NCBI GenBank assembly: GCA_027310365.1
Contig: DAIDAY010000007.1
Coordinates: forward strand, 1 to 36,852
Direction: 5' to 3'
Source: a bacterium
Lineage (GTDB): Bacteria; Patescibacteriota; Minisyncoccia; UBA6257; GWB1-50-10
Length of the DNA stretch: 36,852 bases
The position numbers and the translations under genes are program-made. Shown piece by piece: positions 6,223 to 13,041 of this stretch. The first letter of the stretch is position 1. Each line of letters starts with the position of its first letter. The notes under the pieces are model-generated. The model made no database searches and was not told where the DNA came from. It saw only the letters and a program-made list of their open reading frames with translations.

Positions 6223-6246
6223 ATAAATTTCTTTTTGAGGTAGATG

Positions 6247-6255
6247 TGCTATACT
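6247..6255 (+). promoter_or_regulatory. Extended -10 promoter of the cas12a leader
   Basis: TGCTATACT is an extended -10 element (TG-n-TATACT, hexamer 6250-6255) with no good -35, which extended -10 promoters do not need. Predicted start near 6262, exactly at the 5' side of the long stem of the leader RNA. Confidence 0.6.
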
Positions 6256-6261
6256 ACCCAG

Positions 6262-6379
6262 TGTCGCTCAATAGTGCACAATCGCCCTTGAGATTAAAGA
6301 GGGGCGACGGTTCCAATAAGCTTAACCGTTTGGTAAGCACAACTATTGGGCGACGGCCGTCGTCCCTTTTTGATTTTTA
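6262..6379 (+). ncRNA. Structured leader RNA with intrinsic terminator upstream of cas12a (candidate riboswitch/attenuator)
   Basis: Four helices can be drawn. A closing stem pairs 6262-6275 with 6342-6355 (14 bp, two G-U). A hairpin pairs 6282-6289 with 6300-6307. A hairpin acggtt / aaccgt pairs 6307-6312 with 6324-6329. The loop of that hairpin (gctt, 6320-6323) pairs with aagc (6335-6338), making an H-type pseudoknot. A terminator pairs 6348-6354 with 6359-6365 (loop ggcc), followed by ttttt-ga-ttttt. The 5' arm of the terminator uses the same bases as the 3' arm of the closing stem, so the two are mutually exclusive. This is the geometry of a transcription-terminating riboswitch, or of a short terminated sRNA. 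It matches no riboswitch class I can recall. The cas12a start is 52 nt after the T-run. Confidence 0.6.
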
Positions 6380-6430
6380 AGGGCAAAATTAAAAAATCAC
6401 CCAAGGTCAATAAGTCCAGAAATTAAAACT

Positions 6431-9400
6431 ATGGAGGGAAACACAATAGCGAAAGGCATTTTTGATAGTTTTGTTCGGCAATACTCACTTTCCAAAACAG
6501 TGCGGTTTAAATTAAAACCCATTTGGAGTACCCAAAAAATGTTGGATGAAGAACATATTTTTGAAACGGACGAACTCCGTCACGAGAAATATGAACGGAC
6601 AAAACCTTGGATCGATCGTCTACATCGAGAATTCATTAAAGAAGCCCTATCCGACTTTAGCTTTAAAAGCCTTATACTCTACCGTAAAACGTTTGAGGTG
6701 TGGCAGAAAGACAAAAAATCGAAATCCGCAAAGGACAATTTGGCCAAGGAAGAAAATAAATTAAGGGAAGAAATAGTTGAGAAGTTTAATGCCACTGCAA
6801 AAGGGTGGGCAGGAAAGTACCCCGAGTTGAAGCTAAAAAAAGTTGATGTCGGCATTCTTTTCGAGGCGGGCATATTTCGAGTTCTTAAAGAGCGGTATGA
6901 AAACGAAAGCGGAACAGCGATAACCACAAATGGAGGAGATGGGGTAAACATATTTGACGACTGGAATGGGTGGACTGGCTATTTCAAGAAATTCTTTCAG
7001 ACCCGTAAGAATTTTTACTCCGCCGGGAATGAATCAACGTCGGTGGCGTATCGCATTGTTAACCAAAATCTGCGTCGGTTTATTCAAAACATTCAGCTTT
7101 TTGATCAAGCAAAACACAAAATTGATGTTACAAAAATAGAGAAAGATCTAGATATTTCCTGTGATAAAATATTCTCTTTAGAAAACTACAGTGTCTGCCT
7201 CTTGCAAAATGGCATTGACGCCTACAATCGCGCTATAGGTGGGGAAATAAAAGGAAGGGACAAGAAAATCCCAGGAATTAACCAAGCAATCAACGAATAT
7301 CGTCAGAAAAACAAGAATGATAAGATCCATTTTCTTACCATGCTTAACAAACAAATTCACAGCGAGAAAGAAAAATTTTTAGACGCGATTGAAGATGATA
7401 AGGAGCTTATCAGAGAACTAAGATTATTTGCTAAGGCCGCGAACACAAAACTTGGTGTCTTTAGAAAGTTGATTAGTGATTTTACATCAAACAACGACAG
7501 CTATATTTTGGATAAGGTTTATATATCCTCGGATGCTCTTGAACGAAACGCAAGTCGCTGGTTCGCAAACTACGAGAGCTTTGAACAAGCGTTACTGGAC
7601 ACTGTGAAAGAATATGAGGACGCATATAGCGTATTAGATCAAAAACCGCCCCACGAGAAAGACGGGCAGATAAAATATCCTGATTTTCTGATCTACACGC
7701 ATATAAAATCTGCATTGGATAAGGTGAGTATCCCTATCTTTAAAGAAAAGTACTACGAAGAAATTCCTCGTTTGGGAGAGTCACAATGCTTTGAGCAGTT
7801 TCTGCACATTCTGCAGTTTGAGGTTGAGCAACAATTTTCACATAAGGATCTAAACGGAAGAACGGCGGGGTATGAAATACACAGCAATAATATAAAGTCA
7901 TTACTTGGTTCTCTTGATTTTAAAATTGATAAAGATGCGAAAATCGCAATCAAGAATTTTGTCGATTCGACACTTGCTATTTATCAACTAGCAAAATATT
8001 TTGCCGTGGAAAAAAGACGACAGTGGTTGGATAACTTTGATCTAGATGATCGTTTTTACAATGACACCGATGTGGGGTATATGACATTTTATGGAGACGC
8101 AATGGGGCTGAAAAGTGCATACGAAGAAATCGTGCAGGGATACAATGCTTTGCGTAATTATCTTACCAGAAAACCTTACAGCACGGATAAATGGATACTT
8201 AACTTTAATATCCCAACTCTTGCCGATGGATTTGATAGAAATAAGGAAAAAGAAAACGGTGTTGTTGTGCTCCGAAAAAATGGACAATATTATCTCGGCG
8301 TAATGGATAGCGATCATATGAATCTTTTCGCCGAGGAAAAACAGAAAGAATTAGAAGGCGATGGATACGAGAAGATGAATTATAAGTATTTTCCAAATCC
8401 TTCACAGATGATTCCAAAATGCTCAACCCAACTATCTGAAGTCAAGAAACATTTTTCCAAGTCAACAGAAGATTACTACCTAAAAAGCGAAGCCTTTATT
8501 ATTCCGCTCCGCATCAGTAAGAAAATCTTTGACTTGAATAACTTCGAGTATCAAAAATCCTATTTAGAAACACTGAATGGTTCTGATCCTGATGAATCGC
8601 GAAGAGTAAGAGCGGATAGTCAGAAAAAAAACCAGGTAAAATTATTTCAGAAAGATGTTTTAGAGTTAAGCAAAAACGAGAGAGTGTACAAATCTGCGTT
8701 AAAAGAGTGGATTGATTTCTGCAAAGAATTCCTAAAATCATATGAAAGTACCACGAGGTCGGGGTTCGATTATTCCCACATAAGACCGACTGTGCAGTAT
8801 AGTTCTGTGGATCAGTTTTACCGCGATATTGAAAAAGGAAGTTATAAAGTTACATTTACGCCGATTTCTGAATCTTATCTACGTAGTAAAAACACCGGTG
8901 GAGAGCTGTTTGTTTTTGAAATTCATAACAAAGATTGGAATTTGAAAGATGGTAAGAGAAAAGAGGGGACCAAAAATCTCCATACTTTGTATTGGGAGCA
9001 ATTGTTTAGCAACGAAAACGCCACGCAGAACTTTGTTTTTAAATTAAACGGCGAAGCGGAATTGTTTTTCCGGCCTAAGACGGAAGAGAGTAAACTTGGC
9101 TATAAGAAGTGGGACGTGAAAGAGAAAAAATGGATGAAAGTGATTAAGAAAGAAAATGAGGCAGTTGTGGACAGAAAACGATATGCAGAAAGCACCATCT
9201 TGTTCCATTGCCTTATCACCATCAACCGTGTGTCGGAAAACAAAACGGACACACAAATGAACACCGATATAAGGAAAGTAGTCGCCGAGAAGAAGGAAAT
9301 ACGCATTATTGGTGTGGATCGTGGAGAAAAACATTTAGCGTATTATTCAGTTATTAATCAAAACGGAGAAATTATCTCGAATGGTTTGGGTTCATTGAAT

Positions 9401-10612
9401 ACGGTCGGAGTCGCAAATGGTAAGCCAGTGCCATATGCAGAGATATTAGAGAAACGCATGAAGGAACGCGAAACGGCTCGACGCGAGTGGCAGGAAATAG
9501 AGCAGATAAAAGATACGAAGAGAGGGTACGTGTCACAAGTCGTGCATAAATTAGTTGATCTTGCGATCGAACACAACGCAATCATTGTACTTGAGGATTT
9601 AAGCATGCGTTTTAAACAAGTGCGGAGCGGAATAGAAAAAAGCATTTACCAGCAATTTGAAAAACAGCTCATTGATAAATTAAGTTTCCTGGTGAATAAA
9701 AAGGAAACCAATCCAACAAAAGCGGGACACCCGCTCAGGGCGTATCAACTCACCTCGCCGATCACGGCGTTTAAGAAGATGGGTAAACAAACCGGCATGA
9801 TTTTCTACACTGCGGCAGGCTATACATCGCGCACTTGCCCAGTATGTGGCTATCGTCGTAACATACATTTTCGTTTTGAAAACGTCGATAAAGCGAAGGA
9901 AATTATTAGAAGTCTTGAGGGGTTTACATACAACGCTAAGAATGACTCATTTGTAATCAGTTATTCACTAAAAAAGTTCCTCAGTAAGGAACAGCAGAAA
10001 GAGAATAAGACGAAAAACAAATTGTACGAAAATAAACCTCGCAAAGACATATTTACCCTGTTTACTAAAGACGCCATCCGGTATAAATGGTTTCAACAAA
10101 CTTCGCCGAGATTGCGTGCGATTAAAGACGATGAGGGTATTAAAGATTATCAAGGAACTGATAAACAACAAACAAAACGAGGACTCGTAAAAGAATTCGA
10201 TATTAACAAATATCTCAAGGGTCTACTGAAAAATATTCTTCGGGTGGGGGATTTACGAGAGGTGATTATCTCGTATGAAGTCGGCAAAGAATTCTATGAG
10301 AAATTACTATTTGCCCTTTTTCTTCTGACGGAAACACGTCAAAGCGTTTCGGAGACTGATGTTGATTATATCCATTGCCCGGAGTGTGGATTCGACTCTC
10401 GCAAAGGATTTCAAGGCAATGAATTCAACGGAGACGCAAACGGAGCTTATAATATCGCCCGCAAGGGGATTATGATTCTGGAAAAAATAAAACAGTTTAA
10501 AGAAAAAGAAGATTTATCAAAAATGGGATGGAGTGAAATGTCTATCAGCATTGAGGAATGGGATAAATTCACTCAAAGCCAATGGAACCTTACATCCAAA
10601 TCTCAAAAATAA
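6431..10612 (+). CDS. cas12a: Cas12a (Cpf1) RNA-guided DNA endonuclease, type V-A effector
   Basis: 1393-residue single-effector nuclease that processes its own pre-crRNA and cuts crRNA-matched DNA next to a T-rich PAM. Family marks: N-terminal FVRQYSLSKTVRFKLKP; RuvC-I IIGVDRGEKHLAYYSV (Asp ~963); bridge-helix region; RuvC-II IIVLEDLSMRFKQVRSGIEKSIYQQFEKQLIDKL (Glu ~1055); RuvC-III GDANGAYNIARKG (Asp ~1335). All three catalytic acids are present. Two CxxC pairs (1136/1139 in TCPVCGYRRN, 1316/1319 in HCPECGFDSR) could form a zinc ribbon; the Acidaminococcus, Francisella and Lachnospiraceae proteins read K-x-D-P-x-T-G-F at the first site. Codon use is AT-rich compared with flanking housekeeping genes, suggesting horizontal origin. 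No Shine-Dalgarno precedes ATG 6431. A GGAGGG lies inside the first codons (6433-6438), 7 nt before an ATA codon at 6446. The 3' end overlaps cas4 by 31 nt. Confidence 0.97.
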   Translation: MEGNTIAKGIFDSFVRQYSLSKTVRFKLKPIWSTQKMLDEEHIFETDELRHEKYERTKPWIDRLHREFIKEALSDFSFKSLILYRKTFEVWQKDKKSKSAKDNLAKEENKLREEIVEKFNATAKGWAGKYPELKLKKVDVGILFEAGIFRVLKERYENESGTAITTNGGDGVNIFDDWNGWTGYFKKFFQTRKNFYSAGNESTSVAYRIVNQNLRRFIQNIQLFDQAKHKIDVTKIEKDLDISCDKIFSLENYSVCLLQNGIDAYNRAIGGEIKGRDKKIPGINQAINEYRQKNKNDKIHFLTMLNKQIHSEKEKFLDAIEDDKELIRELRLFAKAANTKLGVFRKLISDFTSNNDSYILDKVYISSDALERNASRWFANYESFEQALLDTVKEYEDAYSVLDQKPPHEKDGQIKYPDFLIYTHIKSALDKVSIPIFKEKYYEEIPRLGESQCFEQFLHILQFEVEQQFSHKDLNGRTAGYEIHSNNIKSLLGSLDFKIDKDAKIAIKNFVDSTLAIYQLAKYFAVEKRRQWLDNFDLDDRFYNDTDVGYMTFYGDAMGLKSAYEEIVQGYNALRNYLTRKPYSTDKWILNFNIPTLADGFDRNKEKENGVVVLRKNGQYYLGVMDSDHMNLFAEEKQKELEGDGYEKMNYKYFPNPSQMIPKCSTQLSEVKKHFSKSTEDYYLKSEAFIIPLRISKKIFDLNNFEYQKSYLETLNGSDPDESRRVRADSQKKNQVKLFQKDVLELSKNERVYKSALKEWIDFCKEFLKSYESTTRSGFDYSHIRPTVQYSSVDQFYRDIEKGSYKVTFTPISESYLRSKNTGGELFVFEIHNKDWNLKDGKRKEGTKNLHTLYWEQLFSNENATQNFVFKLNGEAELFFRPKTEESKLGYKKWDVKEKKWMKVIKKENEAVVDRKRYAESTILFHCLITINRVSENKTDTQMNTDIRKVVAEKKEIRIIGVDRGEKHLAYYSVINQNGEIISNGLGSLNTVGVANGKPVPYAEILEKRMKERETARREWQEIEQIKDTKRGYVSQVVHKLVDLAIEHNAIIVLEDLSMRFKQVRSGIEKSIYQQFEKQLIDKLSFLVNKKETNPTKAGHPLRAYQLTSPITAFKKMGKQTGMIFYTAAGYTSRTCPVCGYRRNIHFRFENVDKAKEIIRSLEGFTYNAKNDSFVISYSLKKFLSKEQQKENKTKNKLYENKPRKDIFTLFTKDAIRYKWFQQTSPRLRAIKDDEGIKDYQGTDKQQTKRGLVKEFDINKYLKGLLKNILRVGDLREVIISYEVGKEFYEKLLFALFLLTETRQSVSETDVDYIHCPECGFDSRKGFQGNEFNGDANGAYNIARKGIMILEKIKQFKEKEDLSKMGWSEMSISIEEWDKFTQSQWNLTSKSQK

Positions 10613-11121
10613 ACGATTTCACGTTCTGCCCGGCGACGCTGTACCTCCACAGCATGTACGAAGGATTTTCAACGGATAATTTCCATGAAACGCCGCAGGT
10701 TGTCGGCAGGTTGAAGCATGAAACGGTCGACAGAGGCGCTTATTCCACAGCCAAAAGGTTTTTGACCGGTTTATCGGTTTACAGCGAAAAGTACAACATC
10801 ATGGGCAGGATCGACATCTATGATCGGGAAACGCAAACGCTCATCGAGCGCAAAACGAAAATCAAGAAAATCTACGACGGTTACCGATATCAACTCTATG
10901 CCCAGTACTATTGCCTTACGGAAATGGATTATCCCGTGAAAAAAATGGTGCTCCGATCGCTCGACGATAATAAAAACTACACCATACCGCTCCCCGGTAA
11001 AAAAGAATGTTTGAAATTCGAAGGTGTCCTGAAAGCAATGAGAAACTTCGATCCTAGAGTGCTCCTTTCGCACCGTTGCCCGAAGTGTGCGATGAGCGTT
11101 TACGGCGCGCTCGGTTGGTAG
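10582..11121 (+). CDS. cas4: Cas4 exonuclease (type V-A adaptation), Fe-S ligands incomplete
   Basis: 179-residue RecB-like nuclease that trims prespacers and helps select PAM-proximal ends with Cas1-Cas2. Nuclease residues are visible: His in GRLKHETVD, Asp in GRIDIYD, E-x-K in LIERKTK, and the QLYAQYYCL helix. The N-terminal cluster cysteine is present (FTFCPATLYLH). At the C-terminus Cas4 normally has three more cysteines, but here only CPKC remains. The following residues read AMSVYGALGW and then stop, with Ser and Gly where cysteines are expected. Either the cluster is lost or altered, or there is a recent mutation at the 3' end. No alternative frame restores them. The start overlaps the cas12a 3' end. 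Codon use at the 5' end is GC-richer than in cas12a. Confidence 0.88.
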   Translation: MEPYIQISKINDFTFCPATLYLHSMYEGFSTDNFHETPQVVGRLKHETVDRGAYSTAKRFLTGLSVYSEKYNIMGRIDIYDRETQTLIERKTKIKKIYDGYRYQLYAQYYCLTEMDYPVKKMVLRSLDDNKNYTIPLPGKKECLKFEGVLKAMRNFDPRVLLSHRCPKCAMSVYGALGW

Positions 11122-11126
11122 TAAAT

Positions 11127-12089
11127 ATGATTACCGCTCCTGATTTTAAGCAAAAGCAGATCCTCTTTATCCAGGCGGAGCGTGGAGTAGAGAATAAGAT
11201 TAAGTTTCAGAACGACAATATCGTTTTTATGAAGGATGGCAAGGTAGCGAATCGCGCTTCGTGTCACCGCGTTTTTGTCGTGTTTATTGCTGGTGATATT
11301 GCAATCACCAGTGAACTGATGAAGTCTGGTTTACAGCACGGCATATCGTTTTTCTTCCTGAAAAACAATCTCGAGGCGTATGCGTCCATAGACGCCGCGG
11401 CGGAGGGCAATTATCTCTTGAGAATGCGTCAGTACGCCATGACTGATGCGGAAGAATTGTTTATTGCAAAACAGATACTGAAAAATAAAATCGACAATCA
11501 ACTGCGCCTCTTAAGATCAAGGAAACTGGGGAAAGAATTGACGGAAAACGAAGCGGCAATTATGCATTCGATCAACGAAGCAGATCAAAATGACTCGCTG
11601 CTTGGTATTGAAGGGAATATATCCAAAGAATTCTTCGGCGCTTATTTCAAACCGATTGGATGGTGGACGAGAATGCCTCGGGCGAAACCGGATATTCAAA
11701 ATTTTCTGCTCGATATAGGATATACGATGTTATTCAATTTCGTTGATTCGCTCTTGCGTCTTTACGGTTTTGATACTTATAAAGGAAACTACCATAAATT
11801 GTTTTTTCAACGCAAGTCGCTGTCTTGCGATATTGTGGAACCATTTCGTTCCGTTATAGATCGCGAGGTATTGAAAATATATACCCTGAAACAAATTGAG
11901 GAAAAGGATTTCAAGATCACGGACGGCAGGATAACGGCTCCGTTCGATAAGACCCAAAAATATGCGAAGGTTTTCCTCGAAGCGATCATGAAAAACCGAG
12001 AAGCTATTTATGCGTACGTACAAGGATTTTACCGCTTTCTTATGAACCACGATAAAAATCCATTCCCTGAATTCAAAATTTCTCGCTAA
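11127..12089 (+). CDS. cas1: Cas1 integrase (type V-A)
   Basis: 320-residue metal-dependent integrase that inserts prespacers into the array with Cas2. Active-site residues are seen as Glu in LGIEGNISKEFF, His in YKGNYHKLFFQRKSLSCDIVEPFR, and Asp/Glu in the same DIVEPFR segment. This is the usual Cas1 pattern with the helical C-terminal domain intact. The start ATG 11127 is five nt after the cas4 stop and gives the short N-terminus (MITAPDFKQKQILFI) expected for the beta-strand domain. The longer in-frame start at 11076 would run through cas4. It lies 1 nt before cas2. Confidence 0.94.
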   Translation: MITAPDFKQKQILFIQAERGVENKIKFQNDNIVFMKDGKVANRASCHRVFVVFIAGDIAITSELMKSGLQHGISFFFLKNNLEAYASIDAAAEGNYLLRMRQYAMTDAEELFIAKQILKNKIDNQLRLLRSRKLGKELTENEAAIMHSINEADQNDSLLGIEGNISKEFFGAYFKPIGWWTRMPRAKPDIQNFLLDIGYTMLFNFVDSLLRLYGFDTYKGNYHKLFFQRKSLSCDIVEPFRSVIDREVLKIYTLKQIEEKDFKITDGRITAPFDKTQKYAKVFLEAIMKNREAIYAYVQGFYRFLMNHDKNPFPEFKISR

Positions 12090-12090
12090 T

Positions 12091-12372
12091 ATGCTTGTTG
12101 TCTCCTACGATTTTGAAGAGAGCGGGCCGCGAACTAAATTTTCCAAGTTTCTCAAGAAATTCGGCAGAAAAATGCAGTATTCGGTGTTCGAAATTAAGAA
12201 CAGTCAGCGGGTATTGAAAAATATCTTAAGTGAGGTAGAATTAAAGTACAAAAAACAGTTTACCGGTTCCGACAGTATTGTCATTATTCCGATCTGCGAG
12301 GCGTGCGAAAAGAAGATGGTAAGATATGGATATGCCAAGAACGAAGAGGAAGATGTGATTGTCTTTAAGTGA
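12091..12372 (+). CDS. cas2: Cas2
   Basis: 93-residue ferredoxin-fold protein that bridges two Cas1 dimers in the spacer-integration complex. The N-terminal strand is LVVSYDFEESGPRTKFSKFLKKFG with the conserved Asp after the first strand. It continues with MQYSVFEIKNSQR (normally Q-x-S-V-F) and the second core strand DSIVIIPICEAC. The start codon follows the cas1 stop by one base (TAA-T-ATG), so translation is probably coupled. It is the last gene of the cas operon; the array leader begins right after its stop. Confidence 0.93.
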   Translation: MLVVSYDFEESGPRTKFSKFLKKFGRKMQYSVFEIKNSQRVLKNILSEVELKYKKQFTGSDSIVIIPICEACEKKMVRYGYAKNEEEDVIVFK

Positions 12373-12574: not shown

Positions 12575-13041
12575 GTCTAATCCATATATTCAATTTCTAC
12601 TTTTGTAGATTTCTGGGAGTATCGACGCACGAAAAGTCTAATCCATATATTCAATTTCTACTTTTGTAGATGGGCGAGCCGACCTTTTGTCATCGGAGTC
12701 TAATCCATATATTCAATTTCTACTTTTGTAGATAAAGTGACCGTATGGGCGATTGGACAGTCTAATCCATATATTCAATTTCTACTTTTGTAGATTCCGA
12801 GTGTGTCGATACTCGGAAAAGTCTAATCCATATATTCAATTTCTACTTTTGTAGATCAACTTCTCGTCCACGGCGGGACTGGTCTAATCCATATATTCAA
12901 TTTCTACTTTTGTAGATCCTTAAACGATCTCTCTCTATTGCGAGTCTAATCCATATATTCAATTTCTACTTTTGTAGATTATCGACCGACCGTTCTGGGT
13001 CATACGTCTAATCCATATATTCAATTTCTACTTTTGTAGAT
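12575..13041 (+). CRISPR. Type V-A CRISPR array: 8 repeats, 7 spacers
   Basis: Eight identical 36-nt repeats start at 12575, 12636, 12698, 12760, 12821, 12882, 12944 and 13006. Each begins gtctaatcca and ends aatttctacttttgtagat, the Cas12a crRNA handle (stem TCTAC / GTAGA, loop TTTT). Spacers are 25, 26, 26, 25, 25, 26 and 26 nt, at or below the short end for Cas12a arrays. The handle lies directly 5' of each spacer on the plus strand, so the array is transcribed left to right from the cas2 side. The last repeat shows no decay, although arrays usually degenerate at the distal end. No spacer has an obvious full match elsewhere in the window by eye. Confidence 0.98.

What the first reader, a model, noticed from the sequence alone, without database searches (positions are those of the whole stretch)
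6247..6430. Riboswitch- or attenuator-like RNA controlling cas12a
An extended -10 promoter fires into a ~115-nt RNA. It has a 14-bp closing stem (6262-6275 with 6342-6355), two hairpins and an H-type pseudoknot (gctt 6320-6323 with aagc 6335-6338), then an intrinsic terminator (6348-6365 plus T-runs). The terminator 5' arm and the closing-stem 3' arm use the same bases, so folding of the enclosed domain would prevent termination and allow cas12a transcription. The repeated gggcgacgg (6302-6310, 6348-6356) adds a further possible switch: both could pair with atcgccc (6281-6287). A ligand- or RNA-controlled switch on a CRISPR effector would be new. A stand-alone sRNA is the alternative.
Basis: partly seen in the sequence, partly recalled or inferred. 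Interest (0 to 1): 0.75.

Follow-up and report, generated by a model that had tools for sequence, protein, structure and literature searches.

The report
Two-fold RNA switch before cas12a
In front of this CRISPR cas12a gene lies a short RNA built to fold in either of two ways; it belongs to a family, absent from the RNA catalogue searched, that sits before DNA-cutting, DNA-recombining and DNA-methylating genes of mobile elements in tiny uncultured bacteria, probably as an on/off switch for them.

Summary
Covariance searches found the same element in dozens of Patescibacteria (CPR) genomes, nearly always directly upstream of a gene on the same strand. Of 54 other scanned copies, 43 precede large serine recombinases, 4 precede restriction-modification methyltransferases and 2 precede cas12a; two further cas12a loci (G155, G244) share it with the window. 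No Rfam family matches.

Covariation is heavy for two mutually exclusive folds: a closing stem P1 whose 5' strand begins at the predicted transcription start, and a long hairpin (R1:Y3 plus X:R2) ending in the U-run. One strand (R2) keeps complementarity to both partners by triple changes. This points to a cis-acting attenuator; the trigger is unknown. In this locus the computed equilibrium flips from P1 to the terminator hairpin as the U-run is made.

Its 'H-type pseudoknot' is an ordinary hairpin. The element is not CRISPR-specific. RNA-bearing Cas12a proteins are scattered on the Cas12a tree, so the RNA was gained or lost independently of the protein. Transcription, termination and regulation are inferred; nothing was measured.

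The parts
6247..6255 (+). Extended -10 promoter element TGC-TATACT
   Evidence: Sequence. In 33 of 43 family copies a TATAAT-like hexamer ends 6-7 nt before the first P1 base; here 7 nt.
6262..6275 (+). P1 5' strand (Y1); predicted 5' end of the RNA
   Evidence: Pairs with 6342-6355; P1 supported in 44 loci, -19.1 kcal/mol on average against -9.8 in shuffles.
6282..6307 (+). P2 hairpin (6282-6289 with 6300-6307), holds R1 in fold 1
   Evidence: Predicted here with probability 1.0 until the U-run is made; weak support across the whole family.
6302..6310 (+). R1 (gggcgacgg), switch strand: pairs with P2 5' strand in fold 1 or with Y3 in fold 2
   Evidence: R1:Y3 helix: 97% of cells paired, 12 of 15 pairs with double changes.
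6313..6318 (+). X (ccaata), pairs with the inner part of R2 in fold 2
   Evidence: X:R2 helix 90% of cells paired; triple covariation Y1/R2/X.
6320..6338 (+).
   Evidence: Simple hairpin in all folds; pairs vary with compensation among cas12a copies.
6342..6355 (+). P1 3' strand (R2): pairs with Y1 in fold 1; its inner part (6344-6349) pairs with X in fold 2
6357..6371 (+). Y3 (6357-6366) and U-run (6367-6371): terminator 3' strand
   Evidence: Terminator-like scan hit; equilibrium switches to R1:Y3 between 6368 and 6372.
6431..10612 (+). cas12a, the gene behind the switch
   Evidence: TIGR04330 735.7 bits.
10582..12372 (+). cas4 (10582-11121), cas1 (11076-12089), cas2 (12091-12372)
   Evidence: NCBIfam and Pfam matches.
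12575..13041 (+). CRISPR array, 8 repeats of 36 nt

Best explanation
A cis-acting transcription attenuator of an RNA family not found in Rfam 15. RNA polymerase starts at the extended -10, and the first bases made are the 5' strand of P1. P2 and P3 form, then P1 closes when R2 emerges (fold 1), leaving Y3 without a free partner, so transcription can run on into cas12a. If P1 and P2 open, or are outcompeted as the U-run is made, R1 pairs with Y3 and X pairs with R2 (fold 2): one long hairpin with a 5-nt bulge ending in the U-run, and transcription stops before cas12a. Something not identified here (a protein, an RNA, a ligand, or the pace of transcription) sets the balance. In this and two other cas12a copies the computed balance tips toward termination; in most recombinase copies it rests on fold 1. 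Shown by sequence comparison: both folds, the promoter spacing and the gene association. Inferred: that R1:Y3 terminates, that fold 1 lets transcription through, and that the switch is regulated.
For: Covariation of R1:Y3 and X:R2 on 39 sequences: 94.2% paired, 174 double-change cells against 48.5 in shuffles, 0 of 500. P1 in 44 loci against shuffled and cross-locus controls, 3-4 Watson-Crick types per outer pair. Triple covariation of Y1/R2/X: 33 of 37 loci pair both ways at one column, C/G/C 19 and U/A/U 9. -10 to P1 spacing of 6-7 nt in 33 of 43. Gene on the same strand directly downstream in nearly all copies; in some copies the ATG lies within about 20 nt of the hairpin (L101, L107, L113), leaving no room for a separate promoter. 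Equilibrium flips in the U-run.
Against: No transcript, termination or regulation data. U-runs in recombinase copies are short (mean 4.7 T of 8), so R1:Y3 may be a weak terminator there. P2 (Y2:R1) is not well supported across the family. G155 downstream of the RNA has a promoter-like TTTACA-16-TATAAT just before cas12a (sequence), which would bypass the switch. G498 carries copies in series without obvious genes between them.
Confidence: 0.62

Rival explanations
1. A stable, trans-acting small RNA made from its own promoter and ended at the U-run; it merely sits next to mobile and defence genes, which have their own promoters.
For: Own promoter and terminator-like end; P1 seals the 5' end at the predicted start. 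G498 has copies in series, each with a TTGACA-TATACT-like promoter, with no clear gene between them. G155 has a promoter-like sequence right before cas12a.
Against: The gene follows on the same strand at short distance in almost all copies, sometimes within about 20 nt; unrelated protein families share the arrangement.
Confidence: 0.15
2. A metabolite- or ion-binding riboswitch: the same attenuator with fold 1 stabilised by a small molecule.
For: Fold 1 encloses junction loops and overlaps the terminator, as in transcriptional 'on' riboswitches.
Against: Conserved positions are mostly explained by the two pairings; inner stems vary freely in sequence and length; the genes share no metabolic theme. 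No aptamer core was identified, though this was not tested rigorously.
Confidence: 0.12
3. A DNA-level feature, such as a recombination or insertion site of the serine recombinases, that travelled with their cargo genes.
For: P1 is almost purely Watson-Crick, 8 G-U of 420 pairs; most copies lie beside recombinase genes.
Against: R1:Y3 contains many G-U pairs, which would break a DNA palindrome; fixed orientation, promoter spacing and U-run; present at cas12a loci, and this genome's 8 resolvase-family genes have no copy.
Confidence: 0.06
4. A CreR-like crRNA mimic starting at the repeat-like sequence 6226-6245 represses cas12a.
For: aatttctttttgaggtagat resembles the repeat end AATTTCTACTTTTGTAGAT; local score 11 versus 7.3 in shuffles, 1% of shuffles as good. 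CreR is reported in type V-A (PMC12737573).
Against: The handle stem is not intact; the 'guide' would be the promoter itself; no such sequence was seen by eye upstream of the G155 and G244 copies. It does not explain the conserved RNA.
Confidence: 0.03

Closest known systems
Transcription attenuators with mutually exclusive antiterminator and terminator hairpins (for example trp and pyr leaders, ribosomal-protein leaders)
   Same: Leader RNA, shared strand between two exclusive folds, hairpin plus U-run before the gene.
   Different: P1 starts at the first transcribed base; both folds covary over diverse genomes; the genes are recombinases, methyltransferases and Cas12a; no leader peptide or known binding site seen.
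Transcriptional riboswitches (ON type)
   Same: Closing stem P1 competes with the terminator.
   Different: No ligand, and no conserved unpaired core identified.
CreR, crRNA-like autorepressor RNAs of type I and V-A systems (PMC12737573)
   Same: RNA-based control of cas genes.
   Different: No crRNA handle or guide in the element; found mostly without cas genes.
tracrRNA / scoutRNA of other type V systems
   Same: Small structured RNA beside a Cas12 gene.
   Different: No more complementarity to the CRISPR repeat than shuffled RNA has; Cas12a is known to need no tracrRNA (own knowledge); most copies lack CRISPR.
Type III toxin-antitoxin leaders (ToxI array, terminator, toxin gene)
   Same: Promoter, structured RNA, partial terminator, effector gene in that order (own knowledge).
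   Different: No toxin of that kind; usually a single RNA copy; controlled proteins are unrelated. Not tested further.

Membership tests
Transcription attenuator leader | Two mutually exclusive conserved folds sharing a strand | tested here: met
   Triple covariation Y1/R2/X and covariation of both helices.
Transcription attenuator leader | One fold is an intrinsic terminator (GC stem plus U-run) before the gene | tested here: inconclusive
   Met by sequence in cas12a copies; U-runs short in recombinase copies; no termination assay.
Transcription attenuator leader | Gene expression changes with the fold | not testable with these tools
   Needs transcription or reporter assays.
Riboswitch | Conserved ligand-binding core | tested here: inconclusive
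   Conserved bases are largely accounted for by pairing; inner stems vary; not analysed in depth.
Riboswitch | Ligand-dependent folding | not testable with these tools
   Needs probing with ligands.
Any Rfam 15 family | Score at or above the gathering threshold | tested here: not met
   No match for the window or for 20 loci; best sub-threshold match 18.3 bits against a threshold of 50.
CreR | Degenerate CRISPR repeat followed by a guide matching the cas promoter | tested here: inconclusive
   Repeat-like stretch with 1% of shuffles as good; handle stem broken; guide target not searched beyond the locus.
tracrRNA/scoutRNA | Anti-repeat complementarity to the CRISPR repeat | tested here: not met
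   Duplex -10.1 kcal/mol versus shuffled mean -10.7; 58% of shuffles are as good.

The most novel reading that the evidence does not exclude
A shared, transferable RNA regulon of Patescibacteria: one RNA switch design, answering one common trans-acting signal (for example entry into a new cell, host starvation or phage attack), gates the DNA-altering enzymes of mobile and defence islands (integrases, methyltransferases, Cas12a). The RNA module is gained, lost or swapped independently of the protein it controls.
Probability: 0.25. Interest if true: 0.85.

Novelty: new variant of a known kind. Interest (0 to 1): 0.7.

Why it matters
It would be an undescribed, widespread regulatory RNA class in a large bacterial radiation whose gene regulation is almost unstudied. 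It also suggests RNA-level control of a native Cas12a together with integrases and restriction-modification genes. Very different enzymes that cut, join or mark DNA share the same switch, which points to a common need to keep them quiet until some event, and gives a concrete element that can be tested in vitro without culturing the host.

Tried and rejected
Pattern GTCGCN{0,2}CAATN{72,102}ATTGGGCGAC in viral contigs: 14 matches, all judged chance palindromes without the other helices. A stricter pattern in viral contigs: none. blastn to phages and plasmids: none. The search for related loci with Cas12a in genome and viral contigs: none. L073 (Planctomycetia contig) matched the pattern by chance inside a coding gene. 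Integron attC sites were considered (GTTRRRY-like P1 ends in some copies) and rejected by inspection: the cas12a copies lack the motif, and the promoter and terminator features do not fit. tracrRNA/anti-repeat role: no complementarity. CreR: weak. Antisense CM hits (for example L034 minus strand) are palindrome echoes and were dropped. L091, L116 and L171 are simple terminators, not members. Literature searches found no description, but the library lacks most subscription papers, and supplements were not readable.

Full report
WHAT IS THERE. The window is one contig (C77) of a 747-kb genome whose relatives with the element are Patescibacteria (CPR). It carries a complete type V-A locus: cas12a 6431-10612, cas4, cas1, cas2, and an 8-repeat array at 12575-13041. 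Between a UvrD-like helicase gene and cas12a lies the element. It folds far better than shuffles (z -4.7 to -5.6). Two points need correction. The 'pseudoknot' is a plain hairpin (P3). The best partner of the terminator 3' strand (6357-6366) is the distant copy 6302-6310 (R1), not the adjacent one.

THE SAME RNA ELSEWHERE. Cas12a homologues in 380 genomes of the phylum showed the same RNA directly upstream of cas12a in G155 and G244, and a 3' remnant in G339. A covariance model of these (R1) gave strong hits only at cas12a loci, plus three weaker hits that turned out to lie before large serine recombinase genes. Models rebuilt from more copies matched 18 of 269 genomes of one class, 22 of 267 of another, and 18 of 182 across the phylum (a few of the weakest matches are simple terminators). 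In a control set of 109 genomes of a non-CPR phylum (reached through a Planctomycetia contig) there was one weak 27-bit match. A pattern scan of all GTDB r220 genomes found five real copies, all in Patescibacteria (Peregrinibacteria twice, Peribacteria, Falkowbacteria and an unclassified one), and one chance match. No Rfam family matches.

GENE CONTEXT. The next gene on the same strand was examined for 54 copies. 43 match Resolvase, 4 are DNA methyltransferases of restriction-modification systems (PF01555 twice; HsdM; an N6_Mtase protein with a type ISP specificity domain), and 2 are cas12a; the window, G155 and G244 add three more cas12a. In G596, G564 and G560 a recombinase and a methyltransferase gene lie divergently 4-5 kb apart, each with its own copy. 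The G596 and G105 islands also carry primase-like genes. The 30 best PF07508 recombinase loci of one class carry no copy; RNA-bearing recombinases in that search are lower-scoring, more divergent members. This genome has 8 resolvase-family genes and only one RNA copy, at cas12a.

TWO FOLDS, BOTH SELECTED. Fold 1: P1 joins the first transcribed bases (Y1) to R2. In 44 loci the own-locus duplex averages -19.1 kcal/mol, against -10.1 with other loci's upstream DNA and -9.8 with shuffles; 0.08% of shuffles reach the own median. The five outer pairs each show 3-4 Watson-Crick types. In 33 of 43 loci a -10-like hexamer ends 6-7 nt before P1, so the RNA should begin with P1. Fold 2: R1 pairs with Y3, and X (CCARYA) with the inner part of R2, leaving a bulge of about 5 nt. 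On 39 sequences 94.2% of cells are paired, 22 of 27 pairs have double changes, and there are 174 double-change cells against 48.5 in shuffles (0 of 500 reach it); sliding the partners drops pairing to 37-53% (the alignment was fitted to this structure, which favours it somewhat). The shared strand R2 covaries with both partners at once: at one column Y1/R2/X is C/G/C in 19 loci and U/A/U in 9, and 33 of 37 loci pair both ways. Selection to keep two incompatible pairings is the signature of a switch. P2 (Y2:R1) is clear in this copy but only weakly supported across the family.

HOW IT MOST LIKELY WORKS. Equilibrium folding of growing transcripts gives P1 as soon as R2 is out (38 of 38 copies). 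In the window it stays at about 1.0 until 6365, then gives way to R1:Y3 between 6368 and 6372, exactly in the U-run. Two other cas12a copies (G244, G804) also end in R1:Y3, whereas 31 of 38 copies overall, G155 among them, stay in P1. U-runs are richer in cas12a copies than in the recombinase group (6.0 versus 4.7 T of 8). The simplest reading is an attenuator: fold 1 lets polymerase through to the gene and fold 2 stops it. Cas12a copies would mostly be set nearer to 'off', recombinase copies nearer to 'on', with an unknown factor moving the balance. What is shown is conservation of both folds, promoter spacing and gene placement. What is inferred is termination, read-through and regulation. 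The energies come from a standard model and ignore kinetics and proteins.

MOVEMENT OF THE MODULE. On a tree of 13 Cas12a N-termini the RNA-bearing ones are scattered: at least three changes are forced by well-supported branches, and G734 with the RNA is sister to G792 without it at 100/100. Yet the R1-to-Y3 stretches of the window and G734 align closely although the proteins are only about 32-39% identical. The RNA has been gained or lost independently of the protein.

COMPARISON AND NOVELTY. It works like a transcription attenuator. It cannot be filed as a riboswitch: no ligand and no conserved aptamer core were shown. It fails the anti-repeat test for tracrRNA/scoutRNA and shows only a weak repeat-like stretch relevant to CreR (PMC12737573). 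The published CRISPR-operon RNA survey reports a V-A candidate in Eubacterium near Uma2 genes that is something else (PMC9067536), but its supplement was not readable here. I therefore call it a new RNA family of a known mechanistic kind, with an unusual set of controlled genes.

LIMITS. The genomes are mostly unnamed draft assemblies. Covariance hits under about 33 bits are unsafe. Counts come from samples, not a census. No expression data exist here.

Noticed in passing
window 6226-6245: Repeat-like stretch aatttctttttgaggtagat resembling the Cas12a repeat end, just upstream of the extended -10; 1% of shuffles score as well. Possibly a decayed repeat or chance.
   Followed up: partly
L095, L096 (G498:C20) and L090 (G498:C5): Several copies of a distant form of the RNA in series (about 270-nt spacing), each with its own TTGACA/TATACT-like promoter and conserved ends but different inner stems, with no clear gene between them.
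   Followed up: partly
L033:1227-1257 (G339): cas12a preceded by only the 3' end of the RNA (R2 plus Y3 and U-run), a natural truncation.
   Followed up: partly
L179 (G596), L180 (G564), L181 (G560), L182 (G105): Islands with a serine recombinase and a second gene (methyltransferase or membrane-like protein) pointing away from each other, each behind its own RNA copy; primase-like genes between them in G596 and G105.
   Followed up: partly
L182:9979-12549 (G105): One 856-aa open frame runs from the serine recombinase into what looks like glutamate 5-kinase, followed by a ProC-like gene; the element may have inserted in front of proB (by eye).
   Followed up: no
L184:9767-14098 (G804): cas12a is split into two frames (723 and 718 aa) with an intact RNA upstream; pseudogene, sequencing error or real split not decided.
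   Followed up: no
window 12611-12635 and 12796-12820: Spacers 1 and 4 of the CRISPR array are partly reverse complementary (GAGTATCGACGCAC and GTGTGTCGATACTC), as if taken from the two strands of related targets.
   Followed up: no
L085, L173, L174, L177: Copies before an S-layer-homology protein, membrane-like proteins and a frame resembling a nuclease: possible further members of the regulated set.
   Followed up: no
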